A stretch of 53,354 bases of DNA from Brasilonema sp. CT11 (GTDB taxonomy: Bacteria > Cyanobacteriota > Cyanobacteriia > Cyanobacteriales > Nostocaceae). This document shows positions 25,195 to 39,493 of the stretch, one piece after another. Numbering within the stretch: the first letter of the stretch is position 1; each line of letters starts with the position of its first letter. The stretch covers positions 1-53,354 of the forward strand of contig NZ_JABXYX010000050.1 in assembly GCF_017982655.1 (NCBI RefSeq). The letters are read 5' to 3'. The notes below the pieces were generated by a model. That model did not search any database. It was not told the DNA's origin and was given only the letters and a program-made list of their open reading frames with translations. Made by a program: the position numbers and the translations under genes.

Positions 25195-26211
25195 CTACCA
25201 TTCAGCAATCTTGACCAAGTTACCTTTATTAGAATTATATTGTAAAGTCGCATTCAGAGAGAGCGGCTGACTAATACTTGAAAGAAACTTGATCACATCT
25301 GAAATCATCAGAGTTCCAATCAAAGTATTGAGATATGAAATTGACGATGATACAACTGTTGAAGAATTATCATCCAGACCCTTTTCGAGTTCTTGATTGT
25401 GCTGAAGAAACTTTTCCATATGGCTCTTGTGAGTCAATAATGGACCTACAATGCCATGATAAACTCCCACACCTGAGAACATACATGGTACATTTTCTTG
25501 TATGCAATACTGTGCTATCCATGACTGAATAGTAATTGGTGGTGTGTCAGCGCAACACAAAACAAAATCTGGCTTTTCTAAGTCTTCTAAACCTGTATAT
25601 AAATCTTCGATTGAATTGATCCTGATTTTACGAGTATGGATTTTTGTATCAGAGTTTCTCCCTAAAATATAGTTGCGTAGTGCTTCAACCTTCGGTGTAC
25701 TAAGGTCAGTCTGACTAAAACAAAACTGACGGTTAAAGTTTGTTATATTCACAGTATCATCGTCGAGTAATATAAAGTTTTTAATCCCAGCAGCTACCAG
25801 ATGTTGAGCAGCTATATTTCCAGTTCCACCACAACCGATGATACAGACAGACTGTTTTGAAAGCTTTTGTTGTGCAGCATTGGGATCGTCAACGAAATCC
25901 GAAAAGAACTCTACTTGCTTCTCGAAAGGTGTTTCCTTAAATTCGTTTTTATAAAAAGGTCTTACTACACCTTTAGAATCCAATAGTGAAATAAATTTTT
26001 CAAGTCTATCCCCTGGTAGTAAAGATGCTAATGTATTAAGTTGTGTTCCTACAAGCATTTGTCTTAATGCTTGCACTACTTCTTGAGGAATATTAGATAG
26101 TACGAAAGACTGTTGACCATTGGTTAGTAATGTTTTCTGTTTTGATGGAAAAAATAAATATATACTAGGCTTCAAGGCTATTCCATCTTGGTATTTATTC
26201 AATATGTTCAT
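25195..26211 (-). CDS. E1-like ThiF/MoeB/HesA adenylyltransferase with N-terminal RRE-like domain
   Basis: 338 aa from ATG 26211 (the TTG at 26244 is less likely). Residues ~10-86 (IALKPSIYLFFP, LLTNGQQSFVLSN, then a helix-rich part to GVVRPF) resemble the PqqD-like winged-helix leader-recognition domain found in front of E1-like RiPP enzymes. The E1 core is complete for ATP use: IIGCGGTG (126-131), DDD (150-152), NFNRQ (R161), TPK (K174), CCAD (D222). The CxxC pair that usually binds zinc after GPLL is absent (GPLLTHKSHMEKF). MccB and PaaA are RiPP enzymes of this type. It is probably the tailoring enzyme for the peptide at 26855-27082; the reaction is unknown. Confidence 0.8.
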   Translation of the reverse strand: MNILNKYQDGIALKPSIYLFFPSKQKTLLTNGQQSFVLSNIPQEVVQALRQMLVGTQLNTLASLLPGDRLEKFISLLDSKGVVRPFYKNEFKETPFEKQVEFFSDFVDDPNAAQQKLSKQSVCIIGCGGTGNIAAQHLVAAGIKNFILLDDDTVNITNFNRQFCFSQTDLSTPKVEALRNYILGRNSDTKIHTRKIRINSIEDLYTGLEDLEKPDFVLCCADTPPITIQSWIAQYCIQENVPCMFSGVGVYHGIVGPLLTHKSHMEKFLQHNQELEKGLDDNSSTVVSSSISYLNTLIGTLMISDVIKFLSSISQPLSLNATLQYNSNKGNLVKIAEW

Positions 26212-26385
26212 ACTTACGCATATATGGAAAGACAAAAAATACAACTTTCACCAGAAAATTATTTTATAGTACAGCTATTTTCAGGTAAATAGACCACATT
26301 TGCCGTAGGGATACAGCATTGCTATGCCTTTATAGTGTGGTTCAAATACGTGAAAACTGCTGTAATTGCCGAGAAATAAATTTCA

Positions 26386-26432
26386 CAGATAATAGCCAAA
26401 GCCAATATAAAAATGACTTTGGCTATTATCTG
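26386..26432. terminator. 16-bp perfect hairpin between precursor and ThiF genes
   Basis: CAGATAATAGCCAAAG at 26386-26401 pairs perfectly with CTTTGGCTATTATCTG at 26417-26432 around a 15-nt loop. In the direction of transcription (-) it is followed by a T-rich run (TGAAATTTATTTC). It could stop most transcripts after the precursor, so that the enzyme is made in lower amounts. Confidence 0.6.
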
Positions 26433-26570
26433 GTAAGTTTGGCTAATGGCAGTTATGGTGACAATTCATACGGAAGTAAGAAATGGGAGTAAAGATATCG
26501 ATTATCTGACTCCCAACTCAAGCAAAAAGTGCGCTTACATAGTTGTCACAAGTATTCTTTGTGTCGTCTG

Positions 26571-26683
26571 AAACATCAATTTAATAATGCCAAGTTTATA
26601 GACTTCAGCCAGTAGATATTAGAAAAGGAAGTACTAACATCTCCATCTTCCGATTACTATTCTGAATTACTAAATTGATGTTT
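26571..26683. repeat. 113-nt element bordered by a 13-bp perfect inverted repeat
   Basis: AAACATCAATTTA at 26571-26583 and TAAATTGATGTTT at 26671-26683 close an 87-nt interior that holds a shorter GGAAG/CTTCC pairing. It lies just downstream of the precursor peptide gene. It could be a structured 3' RNA or a MITE-like insertion. Confidence 0.55.
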
Positions 26684-26854
26684 TAGAGCCGAGTCAGTAT
26701 TAGTATTTAACTCAATACTAATTTTTTGACACAAATTTTTAGAAAATTGGACAGACTACAAGCAAGTAAGTTCAGTAATGAAATTTGCAGTTAGCTTAGA
26801 TTCAGCTTGTATGTATGTTGTCAATTATTACGTGTTGAGCAATCCCTTTGGTTA

Positions 26855-27082
26855 TCAACATCTGACAGGGTATTGTCCTTTGTTGTCAATGCCATCATTA
26901 TCACCAGAGCTAAGAATTGGCGCATTAACTACTATACCATTTAGTAGACTAAGACCATCTAGTAATCCACCTTGAATCTTACCAGTTTCGTCAGCACCTA
27001 ATTCGGTGATAAAACTTTCCGGATTCTCAAAAAACAAATCAGCGTTAGCAGATTCTAGATTTCCAAAAGTAATGTGAGCCAT
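26855..27082 (-). CDS. Putative RiPP precursor peptide with double-glycine leader
   Basis: 75 aa starting at ATG 27082 with AGAGGT 9 nt upstream. The first 39 residues look like a C39-type leader: FITELGADETGKIQGG gives Leu at -12, Glu at -8, Ile at -4 and Gly-Gly at -2/-1. The predicted core is residues 40-75, beginning LLDGLSLLNGIVVNAP, passing through an Asp/Asn/Gly-rich stretch (SSGDNDGIDNKG) and ending QYPVRC with a C-terminal Cys. It lies between the PPIase and the ThiF enzyme on the same strand as the C39 exporter, which should cut after Gly39. Wide gaps on both sides suggest its own promoter. No peptide of this sequence is known to me. Confidence 0.75.
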   Translation of the reverse strand: MAHITFGNLESANADLFFENPESFITELGADETGKIQGGLLDGLSLLNGIVVNAPILSSGDNDGIDNKGQYPVRC

Positions 27083-27590
27083 TTTAATTTACCTCTAAGT
27101 AAGAATTATTTGTGTTTTTCAACAAAACAGAAATGTTTTATTGCTGATTACCAGCTTAAGTAATAAACTCAGATGATTCAAGTATTTTTAATTAGGCTTT
27201 TGGACAGAATAGTTACATTTTTTGTCTTATTTCAATTAGCACTAATTTAATTAGCTATGGACTAACTAGTCAAAAAACGCCAAATTAGAACAGTTTCAGC
27301 CATTACAAGTTATACGTATATATAAAATTAAGATGTAAATCAACTGCAAAGTATAGATAAAAGTGACATAACTGATGCAGTTATTGCTGAACTGATATTT
27401 TGCACCTACCTATCTAAACCACATTGCATAAATTCGTAGCCCTATATCTGTCATTCTGTTTTTGAAAAATCGGGATGCTCCCAAAAAACAGACACAATTG
27501 TTTTAATTATGTGCTCATCAGATAAGTATTTTGTTTAAAAATCTATAAAACTCATATTTGATTTAAAAAAACTCAGTACATCATTGCTTC

Positions 27591-27611
27591 TTCCCTGTTC
27601 CCTGTTCCCTG
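27591..27611. repeat. Heptamer tandem repeat (TTCCCTG)x3
   Basis: Three exact TTCCCTG units. Related CCCTGTTCC-type runs occur near 28650-28690 and inside mutS at about 40130-40160. These are the short tandem repeats typical of filamentous cyanobacteria. Confidence 0.8.
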
Positions 27612-27779
27612 CGCTGACTTTGTTAGTTCATAAATCAAACTGAATTCTTATATAGGAAATCTAACTGCATCCTTTTTGTCTTTTTAGTAGTCATTCCAAC
27701 CTTGAAAAACCAGAGTAAAGAGTAGAGTATAGTAAATAGGAGAAGACAAGATAAAGTGAAACCTATAACAGAGAACATC

Positions 27780-27804
27780 CTGCATCTTAAGAAAAAAGAT
27801 GCAG
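27780..27804 (-). terminator. Hairpin downstream of the PPIase gene
   Basis: CTGCATCTT / AAGATGCAG with a 7-nt A-rich (T-rich on the minus strand) loop, 60 nt after the PPIase stop. It is a plausible end for the HTH-ABC-HlyD-PPIase transcript. Confidence 0.5.
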
Positions 27805-27863
27805 GAACTTTATTAAATCAAAATTTCTCAGTCGCCAGAAGTAGGAATCACTTTGTTATATGA

Positions 27864-28598
27864 TTAAAAATCTGGAATTATTTCCATCTGATAGATTTGT
27901 TGTTTAACCCACTGTGAAAAATAATCTGCAATGATTTGGTTACGTAGCTTTTCATCTAACTCTGGTAGAAGTATTTCTTCCACAAGAATTAAATGTATTC
28001 CTGAAGACGTCACAATTGGTTTGAGAAGCTGAGGTGGCTTAGCAGCAAAGACAGCAGCAGAAATTTCTGGGTTTAAATCTTTACGATGTACTATTCCCCG
28101 ATATCCGCATTTTCGGCGTAACTCTGTGTCTTGGATATATGTGTGAGCCACATCATAAAAACTCATTTCACCTTCTTTTATGGTGTAATAAAGCTCTATT
28201 GCTAAATCTTCGTCATCTAAGACTAGTTCGTATATGACTGCACCAACATAGTCTAATTGGTTTTCAAAGAAATAGGGTTCAATTTTATCTGCAAAGAGAT
28301 GTTTTGCCAACTCTCTATAAATGAAGTTGTTATATGCGATTTTTTCAAAATCATCTATAGAAAGGTGATACTTTTGTAGCCATACCCATGTCTGTTCAGC
28401 ACTTCTAAGGTTATTAATTAATCGCAATGTATCTGCTGTTTTCTGGAGTGCTTGATCTTCTACCTCAATGCCAATCTCCTCAGTCGCAACGGCAACAATT
28501 TTACGGGTGATAATGTCTTGGAGAATCTCTGGAATTTTACAAGATAGCTTGACTTGTTGAAGAATATCTTCACTAGTAATAGTAACAGTTTTTAACAT
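27864..28598 (-). CDS. Parvulin-like peptidyl-prolyl isomerase of the RiPP exporter operon
   Basis: 244 aa from ATG 28598 (MLKTVTITSEDILQQVKLS); the open frame runs 40 codons further up through repeat-derived sequence and is less likely to be translated. N-terminal helical SurA_N-like part (~1-150), then a parvulin-type core (EMSFYDVAHTYIQDTELRRKCGYRGIV...PEISAAVFAAKPPQLLKPI...GIHLILVEEI). No signal peptide or TM segment is visible, so it would act in the cytoplasm. The same PPIase type is a frequent neighbour of C39-ABC/HlyD genes in cyanobacteria; it may keep the exported peptide or the exporter in an exportable form. Confidence 0.8.
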   Translation of the reverse strand: MLKTVTITSEDILQQVKLSCKIPEILQDIITRKIVAVATEEIGIEVEDQALQKTADTLRLINNLRSAEQTWVWLQKYHLSIDDFEKIAYNNFIYRELAKHLFADKIEPYFFENQLDYVGAVIYELVLDDEDLAIELYYTIKEGEMSFYDVAHTYIQDTELRRKCGYRGIVHRKDLNPEISAAVFAAKPPQLLKPIVTSSGIHLILVEEILLPELDEKLRNQIIADYFSQWVKQQIYQMEIIPDF

Positions 28599-28775
28599 AT
28601 AGGAATCCGGTTTTATTTCTGTTAGCTTGCGTGGCGGAGCCATACTAACAAAGTAGGGGGAGGGAACTCGGAACAGGAAGAAGGAATAAAGGTATACTGA
28701 CTTTTTTTCAAAAATCAAAGAGGAATTCTATAATATTTATTCCAGTTAAGTAAAAAAACTTAAACCTAGTACTTT

Positions 28776-30326
28776 CTACAATTTTAAATTTCCTTGCTGT
28801 AACTGCTGGAACGGATCGAGCAGAAAATCAATAATTCGGCGTTGTCGTACAATAACCTCAGCTGTCGCTGTATCGCCTGGACGCAAGGAAATACATTTAT
28901 CTCCCTTAGGAATACAATTGTGTTTAAGGGCAATTTCTAAGTTATAAGCTGCCACTTTTCCATTTGCTGTTTCTACCTCTGTTGTTGTAGGAGAAATTTC
29001 CACCAATTCTCCTTCTACAACTCCATAATCCTGGAATGGATAAGCATCAAACTTTAGCTTGACTGGCATTTTTGTCTGCAATGAACCACTCTCGGCTGTT
29101 GTTATCTGTGCCCGAATAACTAAAGGCGCACCTTCTGGAGCAATTTCTGCAACCATTGTTCCTGACTGCACAACAGCCCCAGCCCTTTGTATTGGTAACT
29201 GAAACACTCTACCAGCGACAGGTGATTTTAAGACTCTTTGCGCTAACTGTAACTGTAAAGTTTGAATTTGACTTTTACTTTGAGCAATATCTGACTTCAA
29301 AGTAGTTATTTCTGTTTCTAGATTCTTGACTTGTTCTTCACTTTTTAAGACAGCTAGCTTACCAGAATGAGTCAAAGTCTGATAACTTCTTTCCTGTTCC
29401 TTCAGGCGTAAGTCAGCCTGCTCAATCTCAGCTTTTGCTTTGCGAATAGTCTGCTGATAATTACTTTGTTGTTCTGCCAAGCGTAGTTTAGCTTGCTCAA
29501 TGTCTGATTGACTTTGTGCAAGCAACTTTTGCTTTTCATTTGTCATATCTTGCTTTTGAACAACATTAACTTCTGCAACAATCCCTTCTTTACTTAACTG
29601 TTTATAGCGTTCAACTTCCTGCCGGGCGCTGGTTAAACTACTTTCTACAAACTTACTGGCTGTTTGACTAGACTCAACAGTTTGTCTTGCCTGGTTGACT
29701 TGTGTCAGTTTTTCTTGTTTTTGTAGTTCATAAGAGTTTTGCAAAGCACTCAAATTCTGCTGCACCTGCTCAACTTGAGCCTGTTTTTCTAACTCTTGTG
29801 CTTGATTTTGTTGTTGCTGAGTTGTCAAAGCGACAACTAACTGTTTTTTCAAAACATTCAACTGCGACAGGCGATTGAACTGCCCTTCCAATTTATCCTT
29901 TACCTGATGCAATTCAGTTTTAACTAATTCCGAATCCAATATCAACACAGGTTCACCAGGTTTGACTAATTCACCTTCTTTCACCTGAATTTTGGCAACA
30001 GTTCCAGTAATAATAGTATCTAAGTTAACTGTCTTACCCTTCGGCTCAAGTCTTCCTCTAGCAGTGCCTGTTTCATCAACTTTAAACAACATCGTCCAAG
30101 GCAAAACGATCGCCGAAAAGCTCAACAGAAAATATAGTAATCCTCTCGTCCAAACATGAGGTAAACTATCAAGTAAATCCTGAGTGACATCAGACCAATC
30201 ATCCTTTGGTTTATCAGTTACCTTATCAGTTGGCTGAACTGATGTTTGAGAATTGAGAATTTCTTGATAGTTATTACTCTCTTGGATGTTGTGAGTGTGA
30301 ACCTTTCCATTTAACGTATTTGTCAT
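28776..30326 (-). CDS. HlyD-family secretion adaptor
   Basis: 516 aa with AAGGAG well placed before the ATG. Short cytoplasmic N-terminus, one TM helix (~64-82, LLYFLLSFSAIVLPWTMLF), lipoyl half-motif (ITGTVAKIQVKEGELVKPGE), a long coiled-coil hairpin (~145-355, very rich in Q, K and E), the second lipoyl half (VLKSPVAGRVFQLPI), beta-barrel and C-terminal part (PGDTATAEVIVRQRRIIDFLLDPF). It is the membrane-fusion partner of the C39 ABC transporter encoded upstream and bridges the periplasm. A REP-like palindrome sits in the 161-bp gap between the two. Confidence 0.92.
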   Translation of the reverse strand: MTNTLNGKVHTHNIQESNNYQEILNSQTSVQPTDKVTDKPKDDWSDVTQDLLDSLPHVWTRGLLYFLLSFSAIVLPWTMLFKVDETGTARGRLEPKGKTVNLDTIITGTVAKIQVKEGELVKPGEPVLILDSELVKTELHQVKDKLEGQFNRLSQLNVLKKQLVVALTTQQQQNQAQELEKQAQVEQVQQNLSALQNSYELQKQEKLTQVNQARQTVESSQTASKFVESSLTSARQEVERYKQLSKEGIVAEVNVVQKQDMTNEKQKLLAQSQSDIEQAKLRLAEQQSNYQQTIRKAKAEIEQADLRLKEQERSYQTLTHSGKLAVLKSEEQVKNLETEITTLKSDIAQSKSQIQTLQLQLAQRVLKSPVAGRVFQLPIQRAGAVVQSGTMVAEIAPEGAPLVIRAQITTAESGSLQTKMPVKLKFDAYPFQDYGVVEGELVEISPTTTEVETANGKVAAYNLEIALKHNCIPKGDKCISLRPGDTATAEVIVRQRRIIDFLLDPFQQLQQGNLKL

Positions 30327-30416
30327 GATTTCTCCTTACAAAATTTTGGATTTTAGCAGATAGAAATGGGAGTGAGGAGGATGAGGAAGATGAAAAATAT
30401 TCTCCCCCTACTTCAC

Positions 30417-30457
30417 GGCAGGTGCTACAACGGGGGGAACCCCCGCAACGCACTGCC
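30417..30457. repeat. REP-like GC-rich palindrome
   Basis: 41-bp imperfect palindrome with outer arms GGCAGGTGC/GCACTGCC and inner arms CGGGGG/CCCCCG, between the ABC and HlyD genes. Same family as 53104-53147. It could form an RNA hairpin that changes the relative amounts of the two products. Confidence 0.7.
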
Positions 30458-30487
30458 TCCCCTACTTCCCCTGCTCTTCTTGTCCCT

Positions 30488-33223
30488 TCACGCCGCCATG
30501 TTCAGCTGCTGTTGTTGATTGAGATAAAAATAATGTCCCCGCTTTGCCATTAAGGCTTCGTGAGTTCCACTTTCAATCAACACACCCTTGTCTAAAACCA
30601 AAATCAAATCTGCATTTCGTATAGTTGAGAGGCGATGGGCTATGACTAAAGCGGTTCGTCCTTTGAGGATTGTGTTCAAATTCCTCTGAATAATCCGTTC
30701 TGATTCTGTATCTAGATGGGAAGTCGCCTCGTCGAAAATTAATAAGCGGGGATTACCTAATAATGCTCTAGCGATCGCAATCCGCTGGCGCTGTCCACCA
30801 GACAACAAACCTCCACCTTCACCAATTTGGGTTTCATAGCCCATTGGCAACTTTTTAATAAACTCATCAGCACCTGCCAAATTTGCTGCTTCTATGACTT
30901 CTTCTAAAGTTGCTCCTGAATGTCCTAAACTGATATTTTCTCGAATCGTACTGCCAAACAAAAAAGTGTCTTGATCAACAACTCCAACACAGGAACGTAA
31001 GGAACGTAGGGAAATACTCGTAATATCTAGTCCATCAATCAAGATGCGACCATCTGTTGGAGGATATAACCCTAAAACCAACTTGGAAATCGTCGTTTTT
31101 CCCGAACCACTACGTCCCACCAGCGCCACCATTTGCCCTGGTTGTATTTCAAAGTTGAGGTTTTCTAGAATATTAGTATCACTTTCTTTGTGATAACGAA
31201 AAGTAACATTATCAAAGCGAATTTGTCCATAAAGTTCTGATAGTGATTGCCGCAGTTCATGCTGCAAATCTTCTTCCGGTTCTGCATCCAACACATCATT
31301 AATGCGTTCGGTTGCAATTACCACTTCCTGCAATTGATTCCATAATACTGTTAATCGTTGGAAGGGTGAAATAATATTTCCCAATAACATATTAAATGCT
31401 ACCAATTGCCCAATGGTTAATTGGTTTTGAATCACCAAGGATGCTCCAAACCATAGCAATACGGTAGTTGCAACAGCTTGAATTGTATTGCTAAATAGTT
31501 GCAAACCATTGCTGATAACTTGCCCGGAGAAGTTAGTTTTTACCTCCTTATGTAATAGTTCCTCCCAATGCCAACGCACTGTTTGTTCCACTGCGGTAGA
31601 TTTCACCGTCCGCACACCAGTCAGCACTTCAATCAGGTAACTGCTTTCATTGGTCACAGCATGAAAGATTTCTCTGGAAATCTTTTGTAAAAAAGGTGTC
31701 GCAATCAACGCCAGCAAGAAAAAAGGCGGTATGATCACCAACGCCAGCAATGCCATTTTCCAGCTATACCAAAACATCAATCCTACATAGATAAAAACTG
31801 TGAGGAAGTCCAGTAGGATAGACAAAGCGTCACCGGAGAGGAAGCGTTGGATTTTGCGGTTTTCTTGTACACGAGAGATAATATCCCCAACATAACGGGA
31901 TTCAAAAAAACTCATCGGAAGTCGCAAAGTGTGGCGAATAAACCCCACAATTAATGCCACATCCAGCTTATTTGCCGTATGGAACAGCAGATATTGCCGC
32001 AAACCCACAATCGCGACACGAAACAGGCTAAAAATCAGCACCCCCAACCCCACCGCCGTTAAGGTGACTTGCGATCGCTGCACCACCACTCGATCCAAAA
32101 TTAACTGAGTGAATAAGGGAGTAACGAGTCCAAATATCTGAATAAATATAGAAGCGACAACCACTTCTAGCATGACAACAGAGTGGGGCTTGATCAACTC
32201 AAAGAATTGCCAAAAAGCAGTTGTTGTTTCTTTAGCATCCTTGAGTAAGACTGTGGGTTGCAGCAGCAGCGCGTAGCCAGTCCATTTTGCTTTAAATTCC
32301 GCATCGCTGAGAGTGCGTTGACCAATGGCGGGATCTGCGACTATGACTTTTCTTGGACCAATTTCATAGAGAACGATGTAATGCTTACCTTCCCAGTGGA
32401 CAATCGCAGGTAATTTTTGCTTCGCCAACTGGTCAAGACTCGCTTTTACAGGTCGAGTGCCAAATCCAAGACTTTCCGCAGCCGCCGATAACCCGCGCAA
32501 CGACGCGCCACTGCGGTCAACATTAGCAATATCGCGGACGCGGTTGATACTGAAGCGTTTTCCCCAATAACGAGATATCATCACCAAACAAGCTGCACCG
32601 CAGTCAGATGCACTTTGTTGGGCAAAAAACGGATAGCGCCGAATCATCCGTTGCCAAAAATGCCCAACTCGTTGCGTAGGATTGGGGAAGTAAGCTTTGC
32701 TTATCCTTTTCCCTTGCTTTGCTTGTACTGCTGATGTTGAGGAAACATTTATCTTAGGATATGGTTTGTCTACATTTGTTGTTTGAGAATCATTTCTCCC
32801 CAAAAGTCGGGAGTTGCGCGTTTGCGCTTGGGTGTGCAAGTGTTCCCGAATTTGTGGGTGTTTAGCCATAAGTGGTAGCAGCACCTCTTTTGGGATAAAG
32901 CACACTTGTAAATTCAACGCAGCCCTAGCTTTGTAAGGCTGAAAATCAGACTCAGGAAATAAGGTAAATTCGCCAAACGACGCACCCACCTCCAAGGAGA
33001 CGATCAATTCTTCTGCGTCGTTTAGCAACCTTACCTTCCCAGCAACAACAATGTAGATGCCAGGTTCAACGTGGTTTCCTTGCCAGAATTTTCCGACTTT
33101 TGGATTGAGAATTTTAGCCGCCTGAAGACAACGTTGAAACTCTTGTTTAGAAAGAGGATATCCTAGAGCATTGTTCAACTGTTGTAGAGAAAGCAAGTGC
33201 GCTTGTGTTGGATTGTGCGCCAT
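30488..33223 (-). CDS. C39-peptidase ABC exporter with N-terminal cNMP-binding domain
   Basis: 911 aa. Order: cyclic-nucleotide-binding domain (~30-135, with GNHVEPGIYIVVAGKVRLL and GASFGEF), linker, C39 peptidase (~197-325; Q202, C208 in SASDCGAACLVM, H281 in GKHYIV, D297 in VADPAIG), six-TM domain (~345-625) and ABC domain (Walker A GRSGSGKTT, signature LSGGQRQRIAIARAL, Walker B LLIFDEATSHLD, H-loop AHRLST). All catalytic residues are present. It cuts double-glycine leaders and exports the core peptide. HetC-type cyanobacterial exporters share the layout. The cNMP domain could gate transport, but a complete set of phosphate-contact residues is not obvious. Confidence 0.93.
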   Translation of the reverse strand: MAHNPTQAHLLSLQQLNNALGYPLSKQEFQRCLQAAKILNPKVGKFWQGNHVEPGIYIVVAGKVRLLNDAEELIVSLEVGASFGEFTLFPESDFQPYKARAALNLQVCFIPKEVLLPLMAKHPQIREHLHTQAQTRNSRLLGRNDSQTTNVDKPYPKINVSSTSAVQAKQGKRISKAYFPNPTQRVGHFWQRMIRRYPFFAQQSASDCGAACLVMISRYWGKRFSINRVRDIANVDRSGASLRGLSAAAESLGFGTRPVKASLDQLAKQKLPAIVHWEGKHYIVLYEIGPRKVIVADPAIGQRTLSDAEFKAKWTGYALLLQPTVLLKDAKETTTAFWQFFELIKPHSVVMLEVVVASIFIQIFGLVTPLFTQLILDRVVVQRSQVTLTAVGLGVLIFSLFRVAIVGLRQYLLFHTANKLDVALIVGFIRHTLRLPMSFFESRYVGDIISRVQENRKIQRFLSGDALSILLDFLTVFIYVGLMFWYSWKMALLALVIIPPFFLLALIATPFLQKISREIFHAVTNESSYLIEVLTGVRTVKSTAVEQTVRWHWEELLHKEVKTNFSGQVISNGLQLFSNTIQAVATTVLLWFGASLVIQNQLTIGQLVAFNMLLGNIISPFQRLTVLWNQLQEVVIATERINDVLDAEPEEDLQHELRQSLSELYGQIRFDNVTFRYHKESDTNILENLNFEIQPGQMVALVGRSGSGKTTISKLVLGLYPPTDGRILIDGLDITSISLRSLRSCVGVVDQDTFLFGSTIRENISLGHSGATLEEVIEAANLAGADEFIKKLPMGYETQIGEGGGLLSGGQRQRIAIARALLGNPRLLIFDEATSHLDTESERIIQRNLNTILKGRTALVIAHRLSTIRNADLILVLDKGVLIESGTHEALMAKRGHYFYLNQQQQLNMAA

Positions 33224-33848
33224 AGATATCTGAATCAGTCCCTAATTTTGTGGGATTAAGAGGCAATAATTCAGTGCTATCCGGCGGATTAGCCGAATTG
33301 AGGTCACGAATTAAAATTTTTGAACTCTTAGCAAAGTCACTCTTATCCGTGTCTTTGTCAGCATTTTTCGGTTGTGGTTTAGTAGATAACCCCATCTGTT
33401 TGAGTAGGCGAAGAATATGGCGATCGCTTACCTCAACTCCAAATTCTTTTGCCAAATGTTTTCTCAGCCAGTTTGCTGTCCAACGTTGAAAAGAATAGCC
33501 GTAATCACGAGGACTATCGTTGACTAGTTGCTGCAAACGCTGCAAATACTCGTCATTCACAGCCATTGGACGACCAATTGGACAATCCTGCCATTGGTGC
33601 GCCATACCTGTACGCGCTATATGCGTCCAATGCCTTGCTGTTGCTGGAGAACACCCCAAAGTTCGACAGATTTCCGTTTGGGATTTCCCCTCATCTACCA
33701 GCAACATAATCTGGATACGCTGGCGGTATAACTCAGGTAAATCTTGCTGTAGACTTTTTTGCAAAAGTTTGCATTGAAACATTGTCAAAAACTTACCATG
33801 AGTCACTGTAGGGTGATTGGTATCAAATTTACCTTGATAGTGTGACAT
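33147..33848 (-). CDS. Helix-turn-helix protein related to the N-terminus of IS630 transposases
   Basis: 233 aa. Two HTH units: KSQTEICRTLGCSPATARHW (~53-73) and a winged-helix block with GYSFQRWTANWLRKHLAKEF and SDRHILRLLKQMGLS (~117-150). These match the DNA-binding part of IS630-family transposases, but no DDE catalytic domain follows; instead there is a polar tail. The tail overlaps the start of the ABC exporter gene by 77 bp in another frame, so the two are coupled. It is the first gene of the cluster and a good candidate for its regulator, derived from a transposase. Confidence 0.8.
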   Translation of the reverse strand: MSHYQGKFDTNHPTVTHGKFLTMFQCKLLQKSLQQDLPELYRQRIQIMLLVDEGKSQTEICRTLGCSPATARHWTHIARTGMAHQWQDCPIGRPMAVNDEYLQRLQQLVNDSPRDYGYSFQRWTANWLRKHLAKEFGVEVSDRHILRLLKQMGLSTKPQPKNADKDTDKSDFAKSSKILIRDLNSANPPDSTELLPLNPTKLGTDSDIYGAQSNTSALAFSTTVEQCSRISSF

Positions 33849-36268: not shown

Positions 36269-39200
36269 ATGCCAAAAAATACTTACGGCCCTGTAATTCA
36301 AAAGCGAGTCAGGCGTCTATTGGAAGCGTTGCTTTGTTTTGCGGATGGGAAATTTGAGGACGGCAACTTTAAAATTGAGTACGACTGGAAAGAAGAAGAC
36401 AGTGCTAACCCCAAGCTGACTATTAAAACAACTCTGGTAACGTTAGATTTGCTGACTTGTGCAGTACCTCGGAACTCCACCCCTAACGCGTTCCCACAAG
36501 TGAGGAGGACAAAAAGCGAATTAGAAAAAGCCAAACGGGAAATTCGAGAAGCGCTGAATTTACTCAAGGATTTTGTGAAAATTTTGGGAGATAACCGTAT
36601 ACAAACCAAGGGTTCTGATGACTGGCACTTTACGTTGAAGCTATGGTCAAAAGACAAAGAAAAGAACCTGAAGCGGTTTGATGAGGTATGGGAAAGCAAC
36701 AGACCAAAGAAATCTAAACAACTAGAAGCTAATTTCACTCAAGATGAGGATGTTGCTGTTGTACCCCAAACTAAACTGACTTTGTTTAAAGTACCAGATT
36801 TACCTTCACACTTTGTAGAACGCCCAGAATACAGTGATGATTTAAAGGCGCGTCTCCTCACCGAATCAACATTAGATAGTCGTACGTTGGTAATTACTGC
36901 CATTCACGGCTTGGGTTCTGTGGGTAAATCGACTTTAACCGCCGCTTTAGCCCATGATCCAGAAGTACAAACTCGGTTTTGTGACGGTATTTTGTGGGCA
37001 ACATTAGGTCAAGAACCCGATGTGCTTTCTTTGCTAAGTGGCTGGGTGCAGGCGTTAGGAGACTATAGCTTTAAACCTACGAGTGTAGAAGCAACTTCTC
37101 CTCATTTGCGGACGCTGCTTTATGACAAAGATGTGTTGCTGGTGGTGGACGATGCTTGGAATACCAAAGATGCACAAGCATTTAATGTTGGGGGATCGCG
37201 GTGTCAGGTTTTAATAACTACTCGTGAAGCTTCAATTGCCGAAGTCTTAAAAGCCAGTACCTACAGCCTGGATATAATGACATCAGACCAGGCGATGGAA
37301 TTGCTGACGAAGAAATTAAAACGCGAGATTACAGGTGCAGAACGTCAGTCAGCCGAAAATTTAGCTAAAGGCGTTGGTTATCTACCTCTAGCATTGGAAC
37401 TTGCAGCCGCCGAAGTTGTCAATGGTACAACTTGGGATGAACTGTTGAGAGATATTCAGCAAGAAGTAGCCAGATTAAAAAGTTTTGACCGACCGGGAGC
37501 GGAAGAAATTACCGATGAAGCAAGTTTAAAACGCTTGAGTTTAACAGCATCATTAAATTTGAGTGTCAAAAGAATGCCAAGGGAAAAGCAGCAGCATTTT
37601 TCTTGGTTAGGGGTGTTGCCGGAGGATGTCATCAATATTAATAAGAAGATGGCGGCGACGCTGTGGGAAATGGATGAGCGTGATGCTGCCAAAACATTGC
37701 AATATTTACGGAATAAAGCATTGCTATTAACAGGAGTACCGCTTGCGGATAATACGCCTACCTATCGGTTACATGACTTATTCCACGATTTGGCGCGTAA
37801 TTTGTTAACTGCTGCCCCACAACCAACGCGGACAGGAGATTTACCAGGGTTAGGTTTCAATCTTGTTGATGCTCACGCTGAATTTTTGAAGAAGTATCGG
37901 CAGAAAATCCAAAATAATTTATGGCATACCTTACCCGATGATGGTTACATTCATCAGCGTTTAGTTTGGCATTTGGAGAAAGCAGGACAAGTAGAAAAGA
38001 TTCACTCTTTATTGCGGGAGGAGTCGGCAACTGGTAACAATGGCTGGTATGAAGCGCGGGAGAAATTAGGACAAACTGCGGGTTATATCACAGATATTTC
38101 TCGTGCTTGGGAATTAGCAGAGAAGAATTGGAAGATATCAACACTGTCCCAAGTGGTGAGTTTGCAGTGTCGCTATGGTTTAATTACAGCTTCCCTTAAT
38201 AGTTTGGCAGCTAATATACCAGTGGAATTGCTGCTAGCTTTGGTCAAAAACAATTTCTGGACTGGTGAACAAGGACTAGCTTATGCCCTGCAAAACCCAA
38301 AACCAGAGCAGAAAGTGCAAGCCCTTGCAGAGTTAGTCAACTATTTGCCACCAAATTTAGAAAAACTAGCACTTTCAGAAGCACTCGCTGCAGCCAGGGA
38401 GATTCAGAAGGAGTACTATCGCGCCAATGTATTGAGAGCTTTAGCAGAGAAACTGCCAGAGGTGTTGCCAGAAGCACTCGCTGCTGCCAGGGAGATTCAG
38501 TCTGAGTCATCTCGCGCCAATGTATTGAGAGCTTTAGCAGAGAAACTGCCAGAGGTGTTGCCAGAAGCACTCGCTGCTGCCAGGGAGATTCAGTCTGAGT
38601 CATCTCGCGCCAATGTATTGAGAGCTTTAGCAGAGAAACTGCCAGAGGTATTGCCAGAAGCACTCGCTGCTGCCAAGTCGATTCAGTCTGAATATCATCG
38701 CGCCAATACCTTGAGTGCATTAGCAGAGAAACTGCCAGAGGTATTACCAGAAGCACTGGCTGCTGCCAAGTCGATTCAGCCTGAGTATTATCGCGCCGAT
38801 GTCTTGAGAGCATTAGCAGAGAAACTGCCAAGAGAGTTGTTGCCAGAAGCACTCGCTGCTGCCAGGGAGATTCAGTCTGAATATCATCGCGCCCGTGCCT
38901 TGAGTGCATTAGCAGAGAAACTGCCAGAGGTATTGCCAGAACCACTCGCTGCTGCCAGGGAGATTCAGGATGAATCATCTCGCGCCCATGTCTTGAATGT
39001 TTTAGCAGAGAAACTGCCAAGAGAGTTGTTGCCAGAAGTACTCGCTGCAGCCAGGGAGATTCAGGATAAGTCTTCTCGCGCCTTAGCCTTGAGTGCATTA
39101 GCAGAGAAACTGCCGCCTGAGTTGTTGCCACAAGCACTGGCTGCTGCCAGGGAGATTCAGGATAAGTCATATCGCGCCAATGTCTTGAGTGCATTAGCAG

Positions 39201-39493
39201 AGAAACTGCCAACAGAGTTGTTGCCAGAAGCACTCGCTGCTGCCAAGTCGAATCAGTCTAACTATTCTGGCGCTGATGTTCTGAGAGCATTAGCTTTAGG
39301 TCTGTCACAAACGCCATCTGCCACACTTTTCCCCATTTGGCGAGATATACTTCATGAACTATCCCTTCGCACTCGTCCTAATTTGCTGCAAGATATCAAA
39401 GCATTATTTCCAGTTATCTTTGCATTAAGTGGTGAAGCTGCAACGGCAGAAGTTGCTCGTGCAATTGAGGATGTGGGGCGATGGTGGAGATAA
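36269..39493 (+). CDS. NB-ARC STAND ATPase with C-terminal helical repeats
   Basis: 1074 aa. N-terminal domain (~1-150, with KREIREALNLLKDFVKIL and DDWHFTLKLWSKDKEKN) resembles a domain recurring in front of cyanobacterial STAND/AAA proteins and probably mediates partner binding. NB-ARC (~180-480): P-loop HGLGSVGKSTL (~213), Walker B LLVVDDAW, sensor VLITTRE, GLPL-type GYLPLALEL, then winged helix with RLHDLFHDLARNL. A helical linker follows, then about ten 31-33-aa repeats (LPEALAAAREIQ...LAEKLPEV, ~705-1010) and a C-terminal cap. STAND proteins oligomerise when the repeat sensor binds its trigger; many act in phage defence or programmed death. No fused toxin or nuclease domain is visible. 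Confidence 0.85.
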   Translation: MPKNTYGPVIQKRVRRLLEALLCFADGKFEDGNFKIEYDWKEEDSANPKLTIKTTLVTLDLLTCAVPRNSTPNAFPQVRRTKSELEKAKREIREALNLLKDFVKILGDNRIQTKGSDDWHFTLKLWSKDKEKNLKRFDEVWESNRPKKSKQLEANFTQDEDVAVVPQTKLTLFKVPDLPSHFVERPEYSDDLKARLLTESTLDSRTLVITAIHGLGSVGKSTLTAALAHDPEVQTRFCDGILWATLGQEPDVLSLLSGWVQALGDYSFKPTSVEATSPHLRTLLYDKDVLLVVDDAWNTKDAQAFNVGGSRCQVLITTREASIAEVLKASTYSLDIMTSDQAMELLTKKLKREITGAERQSAENLAKGVGYLPLALELAAAEVVNGTTWDELLRDIQQEVARLKSFDRPGAEEITDEASLKRLSLTASLNLSVKRMPREKQQHFSWLGVLPEDVININKKMAATLWEMDERDAAKTLQYLRNKALLLTGVPLADNTPTYRLHDLFHDLARNLLTAAPQPTRTGDLPGLGFNLVDAHAEFLKKYRQKIQNNLWHTLPDDGYIHQRLVWHLEKAGQVEKIHSLLREESATGNNGWYEAREKLGQTAGYITDISRAWELAEKNWKISTLSQVVSLQCRYGLITASLNSLAANIPVELLLALVKNNFWTGEQGLAYALQNPKPEQKVQALAELVNYLPPNLEKLALSEALAAAREIQKEYYRANVLRALAEKLPEVLPEALAAAREIQSESSRANVLRALAEKLPEVLPEALAAAREIQSESSRANVLRALAEKLPEVLPEALAAAKSIQSEYHRANTLSALAEKLPEVLPEALAAAKSIQPEYYRADVLRALAEKLPRELLPEALAAAREIQSEYHRARALSALAEKLPEVLPEPLAAAREIQDESSRAHVLNVLAEKLPRELLPEVLAAAREIQDKSSRALALSALAEKLPPELLPQALAAAREIQDKSYRANVLSALAEKLPTELLPEALAAAKSNQSNYSGADVLRALALGLSQTPSATLFPIWRDILHELSLRTRPNLLQDIKALFPVIFALSGEAATAEVARAIEDVGRWWR
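38381..39290 (+). repeat. Tandem 93/99-bp coding repeats of the NB-ARC gene
   Basis: About ten units of 31-33 codons. Units at 38474-38566 and 38567-38659 differ at one base, so the array is freshly duplicated. The unit frame is conserved, while the codons for the middle segment (around SESSRAN, KEYYRAN, SEYHRAR, DKSYRAN) vary from unit to unit. Confidence 0.9.

What the first reader, a model, noticed from the sequence alone, without database searches (positions are those of the whole stretch)
25195..33848. Self-contained RiPP-type cluster whose only tailoring enzyme is an RRE-ThiF adenylyltransferase
Six minus-strand genes lie between a convergent TPR gene and a divergent NDH-2 gene: HTH protein, C39 ABC exporter with cNMP domain, HlyD adaptor, parvulin-like PPIase, double-glycine precursor, and E1-like ThiF enzyme with a leader-recognition-like N-terminus. 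Known ThiF-only RiPPs (microcin C7 with MccB, pantocin A with PaaA) do not use this combination of C39/HlyD export plus a PPIase. No YcaO, LanM or radical-SAM gene is present. Seen: genes, motifs and layout. Inferred: that they act together.
Basis: partly seen in the sequence, partly recalled or inferred. Interest (0 to 1): 0.8.

Follow-up and report, generated by a model that had tools for sequence, protein, structure and literature searches.

The report
ThiF-only peptide cluster in cyanobacteria
A cyanobacterium carries a small gene cluster in which a single microcin-C-type activating enzyme appears to modify the tail of a secreted peptide that has borrowed its leader and export genes from a lanthipeptide-like system; it is a real and probably working cluster, and a new variant of a known kind.

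Summary
In detail: six minus-strand genes (25195-33848) encode an HTH protein, C39-ABC exporter, HlyD, parvulin PPIase, a 75-aa double-glycine precursor and a ThiF-like enzyme. The cluster recurs in four Brasilonema-group genomes. ThiF is under purifying selection (dN/dS 0.14-0.20); the leader is almost invariant; the core is hypervariable but ends in a conserved tail. The enzyme's nearest solved structure is MccB; ATP-site residues are kept and its N-terminal domain models as an RRE. (1) HTH-C39-HlyD-PPIase is the ordinary cassette of cyanobacterial class V-type (LanK/HopA1) clusters, and the leader is that family's. (2) The same genome has a sister cluster with a 71%-identical ThiF beside LanK and HopA1. 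(3) ThiF-only RiPPs now include EnfB and IndF systems. In six of six loci ThiF travels with one leader subtype (PESF: 8 of 8 precursors with ThiF, 0 of 78 without), across two exporter lineages; a 2.5-kb precursor-ThiF block is cleanly missing in a sister species. Most likely ThiF binds this leader and adenylates the precursor's C-terminal carboxylate, closing a C-terminal ring before C39 export. The chemistry is inferred, not shown. New variant of a known kind.

The parts
25195..26211 (-). RRE-ThiF enzyme (338 aa), MccB-like; RRE about residues 1-90, adenylation domain about 111-331
   Evidence: Pfam ThiF E 1.2e-42; best PDB match MccB 6om4 E 1.8e-27 single sequence, 6.5e-45 profile; N-terminal model resembles RREs; R161, K174, D222 kept
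26855..27082 (-). precursor peptide, 39-aa leader ending GG, 36-aa core ending GDNDGIDNKGQYPVRC
   Evidence: conserved in 4 genomes, leader dN 0 to 0.046, variable core
26966..27082 (-). leader-coding part (ThiF-associated subtype LFFENPESFITELG...IQGG)
26855..26905 (-). conserved core tail GDNDGIDNKGQYPVRC with stop codon, proposed site of modification
   Evidence: alignment; penultimate Arg in 8 of 8 ThiF-associated precursors
27864..28598 (-). parvulin/PpiC-type PPIase (conserved start 28598; open frame upstream to 28718)
   Evidence: Pfam Rotamase E 1.1e-8; dN/dS 0.20-0.27
28776..30326 (-). HlyD-type periplasmic adaptor
   Evidence: TIGR01843 215.7 bits, over cut-off
30488..33223 (-). C39 peptidase-ABC exporter with N-terminal cNMP-binding domain ('long type')
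   Evidence: Pfam; exporter tree
33147..33848 (-). HTH protein (IS630-type HTH), usual member of the cassette
   Evidence: Pfam/NCBIfam; HTH found in 13 of 20 leader loci

Best explanation
The cluster makes and exports a RiPP whose only dedicated tailoring enzyme is an MccB-like RRE-ThiF adenylyltransferase. The leader and export cassette come from the cyanobacterial class V-type (LanK/HopA1) system, whose kinase and lyase are absent here. Proposed path: the RRE of ThiF binds the PESF-subtype leader; ATP and Mg adenylate the alpha-carboxylate of the precursor's last residue (...R-C/Y/W); the acyl-AMP is captured inside the molecule by a tail nucleophile (candidates: invariant Tyr of YPxRx, ring of 5; invariant Lys of DNK; Cys of CSRT, ring of 4, in the sister precursors), giving a C-terminal macrocycle of -18 Da. 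C39 then cuts after Gly39, and ABC/HlyD, aided by the PPIase, exports the core. Shown: genes, conservation, ThiF-leader co-occurrence, kept ATP-site residues. Supported by a model: the RRE. Inferred: that ThiF modifies this peptide, the carboxylate used, the nucleophile, and the roles of PPIase and HTH.
For: Co-occurrence: ThiF and the PESF/FF[EN] leader subtype at 6 of 6 loci of 4 genomes; signature in 8 of 8 complete ThiF-associated precursors, 0 of 78 others. The two locus types use exporters of different starred clades, so ThiF and leader seem to have moved together. A block of about 2.48 kb holding precursor and ThiF, and no other recognised gene, is absent with a clean junction in G021 beside the same cassette. 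Selection: ThiF dN/dS 0.14-0.20; leader dN 0-0.046; core dN 0.13-0.47. Enzyme: MccB is the best solved relative. R161, K174, D222 align with MccB and match in motif and Arg-Lys spacing the essential R167, K180, D225 of EnfB named in PMC12250964 section 5 (EnfB itself was not aligned). RRE: the best 14 Foldseek hits of the N-terminal domain model are RiPP enzymes or leader-binding proteins (ThcOx, PbtF RRE, heterocyclases incl. TruD, TigE, TbiB1, McbBCD); MccB comes at rank 17 (that each bears an RRE is in part recalled). C-terminal activation: the one feature I see shared by the two unrelated core types is a penultimate Arg (8 of 8, against 7 of 69 distinct tails without ThiF), and MccB, EnfB and IndF act at the C-terminal carboxylate (PMC12250964, PMC12150305).
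Against: No product has been seen. The C-terminal residue is Cys, Tyr, Trp or Thr, not Asn, so MccC-like chemistry is not implied. The conserved acidic DNDGIDN segment would also suit side-chain activation (as in GrcB or PaaA). No RRE match reaches E 0.001 (best 1.6e-3), ribosomal oxygenases stand at ranks 15, 16, 19 and 21-24 of the same list, and the model is moderate (pLDDT 71; the full-length model failed at 40.7). Pfam shows no RRE/PqqD family in the protein. All 7 genus genomes carry at least one HopA1 gene, so modification in trans by LanK/LanY cannot be excluded. The 8 ThiF-associated precursors are two core types related by descent, and the leader model was built from them, so signature and Arg counts are few independent events. 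The CxxC of zinc-bearing relatives is absent from all six ThiF proteins of this subfamily.
Confidence: 0.55

Rival explanations
1. Side-chain activation: ThiF adenylates an Asp of the conserved DNDGIDN segment, which is attacked by the C-terminal Cys, Tyr or Trp side chain (GrcB-like, reverse orientation) or cyclises as in pantocin.
For: Last residue is Cys, Tyr or Trp, all possible nucleophiles, and the Asp segment is conserved; GrcB joins an internal Glu to a C-terminal Cys (PMC12250964 section 4).
Against: The four complete sister precursors served by the 71%-identical ThiF have no Asp or Glu in the core and end GNTCSRT, so one shared chemistry would not work there.
Confidence: 0.2
2. ThiF acts on the precursor together with LanK/LanY encoded elsewhere (in trans), so the cluster is a satellite of a class V-type cluster such as that on contig C348.
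For: Same leader family; the C348 cluster with ThiF, LanK and HopA1 is in the same genome; each of 7 genus genomes has at least one HopA1 gene, G022 has four.
Against: Two of four window-type cores have no Cys and the other two have only a C-terminal one, so no ordinary lanthionine; G022 and G025 have the cluster but no second ThiF of this subfamily, and G025's single HopA1 gene has no leader-type precursor beside it.
Confidence: 0.12
3. The peptide is exported unmodified (like a class II microcin; recalled) and ThiF serves another purpose or only docks the leader.
For: The same cassette stands next to untailored double-glycine peptides in G021, G023 and G024; docking-only ThiF proteins are known in YcaO systems (PMC12150305, part 1).
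Against: ATP-site residues are kept, no YcaO family was found in the window, ThiF is under purifying selection and is present or absent together with the precursor.
Confidence: 0.1
4. Decaying remnant of a class V-type lanthipeptide cluster.
For: LanK/HopA1 genes missing; HlyD is split in the sister locus of G021.
Against: ThiF, PPIase, HlyD and C39 are open in 4 genomes with pairwise dN/dS 0.09-0.27.
Confidence: 0.03

Closest known systems
MccB / microcin C-type RiPPs
   Same: RRE plus ThiF architecture, ATP-site residues, best solved-structure match
   Different: precursor is a long double-glycine peptide ending Cys/Tyr/Trp instead of a short peptide ending Asn; C39/HlyD export; no CxxC in ThiF
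EnfB (enterofaecin) and IndF (indolylamide) ThiF-like RiPPs
   Same: ThiF is the core-modifying enzyme beside precursor and transporter; C-terminal carboxylate activation (PMC12250964, PMC12150305)
   Different: Enterococcus and Streptococcus hosts, other core motifs (WWIVI, NWYFI), no C39/HlyD/PPIase cassette named in the parts read, different leader motifs
GrcB (GRC-type thiolactone)
   Same: RRE-ThiF making a macrocycle; C-terminal Cys in the precursor
   Different: radical SAM partners; side-chain Glu used; no Glu in these cores
Cyanobacterial class V-type (LanK/HopA1) clusters, 'type-B' LanA of Liang et al. 2022
   Same: leader found in loci with LanK and HopA1, and the HTH-C39-HlyD-PPIase cassette
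   Different: no LanK or HopA1 in the cluster; ThiF instead; 0 of 20 sampled leader loci have ThiF. Their type-B alignment (supplement) was not seen.
Cyanobacterial bacteriocin groups I/II of Wang, Fewer and Sivonen 2011
   Same: long-type C39 transporter with CAP_ED domain, HlyD and SurA-like rotamase (PMC3140520, passages)
   Different: ThiF does not occur in that paper's main text (0 occurrences)

Membership tests
ThiF-like (TLAT) RiPP enzymes | ThiF adenylation domain with conserved Arg/Lys/Asp for ATP and Mg | tested here: met
   R161, K174, D222 aligned to MccB; essential residues named for EnfB in PMC12250964, matched by motif and spacing
ThiF-like (TLAT) RiPP enzymes | N-terminal RRE | tested here: met
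   by fold model only: pLDDT 71, best Foldseek hits are RiPP leader-binding proteins, best E 1.6e-3; no Pfam match
ThiF-like (TLAT) RiPP enzymes | ATP-dependent modification of the cognate precursor | not testable with these tools
   needs enzyme assay
Microcin C type | precursor ending in Asn | tested here: not met
   ends C, Y, W, C in four genomes
Microcin C type | short precursor, mostly 7 residues (abstract of PMC6495379 in search listing) | tested here: not met
   75-81 aa with GG leader
Class V lanthipeptide | LanK kinase and LanY (HopA1) lyase in the cluster | tested here: not met
   none in the cluster; both on contig C348
Class V lanthipeptide | Ser/Thr and Cys in core for lanthionine | tested here: not met
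   two of four cores have no Cys, two have one at the C-terminus
Class V-type leader family (cyanobacteria) | leader homology to precursors beside LanK and HopA1 | tested here: met
   leader model, built from window- and C348-type leaders, matches 116 of 208 family genomes at E up to 0.001; LanK and HopA1 in 18 of 20 loci that I picked
Cyanobacterial bacteriocin group I/II | long-type C39-ABC (CAP_ED), HlyD, SurA-like rotamase | tested here: met
   definition from PMC3140520 passages

The most novel reading that the evidence does not exclude
A new RiPP subclass: a microcin-C-type activating enzyme that was re-targeted to a class V lanthipeptide-type leader and closes a C-terminal ring on a hypervariable peptide with a fixed tail, through an aryl ester (Tyr) or lactam (Lys) not reported for ThiF enzymes in the papers read. 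In the sister cluster the same enzyme would close a Cys-Ser-Arg-Thr thiolactone on a dehydrated, possibly lanthionine-bearing peptide, a hybrid of two RiPP chemistries.
Probability: 0.3. Interest if true: 0.75.

Novelty: new variant of a known kind. Interest (0 to 1): 0.55.

Why it matters
It shows an activating enzyme and a leader apparently moving as one module between exporters, and between a class V-type setting and a minimal setting: a natural experiment on how RiPP enzymes are recruited by their leaders. Two ThiF paralogues on two unrelated cores in one strain allow a direct test of what ThiF-like enzymes recognise. The host, if it is Brasilonema sp. CT11 as size and contig number suggest, is in culture with public mass spectrometry data (PMC7503407, passages).

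Tried and rejected
Structure of full-length ThiF from four related sequences failed (pLDDT 40.7); only the N-terminal domain was usable. ORFs of 18 aa or more between precursor and ThiF were listed and I saw none shared by all four genomes. Rfam gave nothing in the cluster. The genome-contig scan returned three Brasilonema/Scytonema loci and one short match in Ruminococcus. The phylum-wide ThiF search (14 of 386 genomes at E up to 1e-25) gave, outside the window's own genome, only matches of 90-112 bits against 632-664 for this subfamily. Six distant ThiF contexts (L018, L086, L087, L088, L090, L091) have no leader (best model E 0.087) and no cassette; one 35-residue match to the exporter in L087 is not a C39 exporter. 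Rejected: membership in microcin C and in class V lanthipeptides (see tests), and the idea that the exporter-PPIase combination is itself new. Papers: PMC9486802 (search listing, passages, section 7), PMC12250964 (outline, sections 7, 14, 17, passages), PMC12150305 (parts 1 and 2 of 3), PMC3140520 and PMC7503407 (passages only); other papers were seen only in search listings. No paper describing ThiF in a cyanobacterial class V-type cluster was seen in the listings of searches; subscription journals are not held, and the listings show at most 20 papers each.

Full report
WHAT IS THERE. The window is contig C333 of an 8,789,847-base, 411-contig genome; size and contig number fit Brasilonema sp. 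CT11 (411 scaffolds, about 8.79 Mbp, PMC7503407 passages), an inference only. The exporter carries an N-terminal cNMP-binding domain. The precursor has a 39-residue leader ending GG and a 36-residue core. Of the 31 non-overlapping window ORFs of 110 aa or more, all scanned with Pfam, none is a YcaO, LanM or radical SAM protein.

CONSERVATION. The same cluster lies in three other genomes of the genus: G020 (Brasilonema angustatum HA4187-MV1), G022, and G025 (Scytonema tolypothrichoides VB-61278); the two names come from contigs of equal length and position. ThiF is 89-95% identical to the window's. Pairwise dN/dS is 0.14-0.20 for ThiF, 0.13-0.19 for HlyD, 0.09-0.14 for the C39 exporter and 0.20-0.27 for the PPIase; in the precursor the leader has dN 0 to 0.046 while the core has dN 0.13-0.47, with indels. 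The core nevertheless ends in a fixed tail, DxDGIDNKxxYPxR followed by C, Y, W or C. Two of the four cores have no Cys.

WHERE THE LEADER AND CASSETTE COME FROM. A model of the leader finds matches in 116 of 208 genomes of the family. In 20 loci that I chose from that list, tblastn found HopA1 in 18, LanK/LxmK in the same 18, the PPIase in 17, HlyD in 16, the C39 exporter in 14, the HTH protein in 13, an aldo-keto reductase-like protein in 12 and ThiF in 0 (several contigs are cut short). So cassette and leader are those of cyanobacterial class V-type clusters; Liang et al. 2022 report a cyanobacteria-only 'type-B' of putative class V precursors (PMC9486802, section 7). Whether the window leader falls in their alignment could not be checked. 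The cassette also matches groups I/II of Wang et al. 2011 (PMC3140520, passages).

THE SISTER CLUSTER. The same genome has a 71%-identical ThiF on contig C348, next to a HopA1 protein, a short LxmK-like kinase and an MsnO8-family luciferase-like oxidoreductase, with Cys-bearing precursors (3 or 4 Cys) of a related leader and a second HopA1/LxmK pair. G020 has the same cluster, split over two contigs. The LxmK-like proteins are below the NCBIfam cut-off of that model (44.2 and 93.5 bits, cut-off 315). Thus ThiF is not only found alone.

THIF AND LEADER GO TOGETHER. This ThiF subfamily was found at 6 loci in 4 of the 217 family genomes searched, all of one genus; a fifth genome matched at 30% identity only. 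All six loci have a leader of a distinct subtype: PESF and FF[EN] in 8 of 8 complete ThiF-associated precursors and 0 of 78 others. Of the 7 genus genomes, the three without this ThiF have no leader match near the score of this subtype. The two locus types use exporters from different well-supported clades, so leader and ThiF seem to have moved as a pair. In G021, whose exporter is sister to that of G025 (support 100/99), the cassette is present but a block of about 2.48 kb with precursor and ThiF is absent with a clean junction. The tree alone needs two changes either way (one gain and one loss, or two gains); the matching position beside the cassette favours a loss in G021. G021, G023 and G024 instead have another double-glycine peptide downstream, on the opposite strand, and G025 has both. 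The eight leaders share descent, so this is strong linkage but few independent events.

THE ENZYME. The closest solved structures are MccB (E 1.8e-27 with one sequence, 6.5e-45 with a profile), ahead of ThiF and MoeB; PaaA is weaker. The glycine-rich motif, the NFNRQ motif, R161, K174 and D222 are kept; the last three correspond, by way of MccB and by spacing, to residues reported essential in EnfB (PMC12250964). There is no CxxC. The N-terminal 107 residues model at pLDDT 71 as strands followed by three helices. The 14 best Foldseek hits are RiPP enzymes or leader-binding proteins, among them the PbtF RRE, TbiB1, ThcOx and McbBCD, and MccB is rank 17; ribosomal oxygenases are mixed in from rank 15 on, and no hit reaches E 0.001.

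HOW IT MAY WORK. Known ThiF-like RiPP enzymes adenylate a carboxylate that is then attacked: MccB (C-terminal Asn, phosphoramidate), PaaA, GrcB (Glu to C-terminal Cys thiolactone), EnfB (C-terminal imide), IndF (C-terminal Ile to Trp indole) (PMC12250964 sections 7, 14, 17; PMC12150305 parts 1-2). Here the two core types share a penultimate Arg (8 of 8, against 7 of 69 distinct tails without ThiF) and a possible nucleophile 4-5 residues from the end (Cys of CSRT, Tyr of YPxRx), which resembles the four-residue ring of IndF. I therefore favour C-terminal activation and ring closure, confidence about 0.55; the ring atom is a guess.

NOVELTY. New as far as the listings of searches show: a ThiF enzyme tied to the class V-type leader, both within a LanK/HopA1 cluster and alone. 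The review by Zhu et al. mentions a ThiF-like gene beside a lanthipeptide dehydratase in Abiotrophia defectiva (PMC12250964 section 4.2), so a ThiF-lanthipeptide pairing as such has a precedent. Verdict: new variant of a known kind, interest 0.55.

Noticed in passing
L157 9406-9627 (-), L158 12962-13210 and 13653-13901 (-), L159 12804-13073 and 13522-13773 (-), L020 7639-7845 (-): A second double-glycine peptide family (MAKITISQL..SDSYINELSNTELDATKGG) lies on the opposite strand downstream of the same C39-HlyD-PPIase cassette with no tailoring gene recognised beside it; not found by tblastn in the window, L019 (G022) or L021 (G020).
   Followed up: partly
L066-L085, L165, L166 (Nostocaceae class V-type clusters): Precursors with this leader but no ThiF often have Cys-poor cores (46 of 78 none, 23 one, 9 two Cys after the first GG), although LanK and HopA1 genes are near; their products may be dehydrated rather than lanthionine peptides.
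   Followed up: partly
L160 9517-11958, L163 9759-12250, L164 7562-10046: A LanK-HopA1 pair with no leader-type precursor recognised nearby in G025, G000 and G021, in a similar neighbourhood in each; a possible non-RiPP role of this kinase-lyase pair.
   Followed up: no
L070 4775-6639 and other class V-type loci: An aldo-keto reductase-like protein (12 of 20 loci; Pfam on one member) and a second, divergent parvulin (11 of 20) stand near HopA1 in many class V-type clusters.
   Followed up: partly
window 27864-28598 (-): The cluster PPIase has a sub-threshold match to TIGR04500, a putative peptide maturation system protein (56.3 bits, cut-off 180).
   Followed up: no
window 36269-39493 (+): STAND-type protein with EAD4 and NB-ARC domains and a near-repeat array at its C-terminus, possible conflict or defence protein.
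   Followed up: no
L157 6917-8423: HlyD is split into two ORFs in G021, the genome lacking the precursor-ThiF block; decay or assembly error not decided.
   Followed up: no
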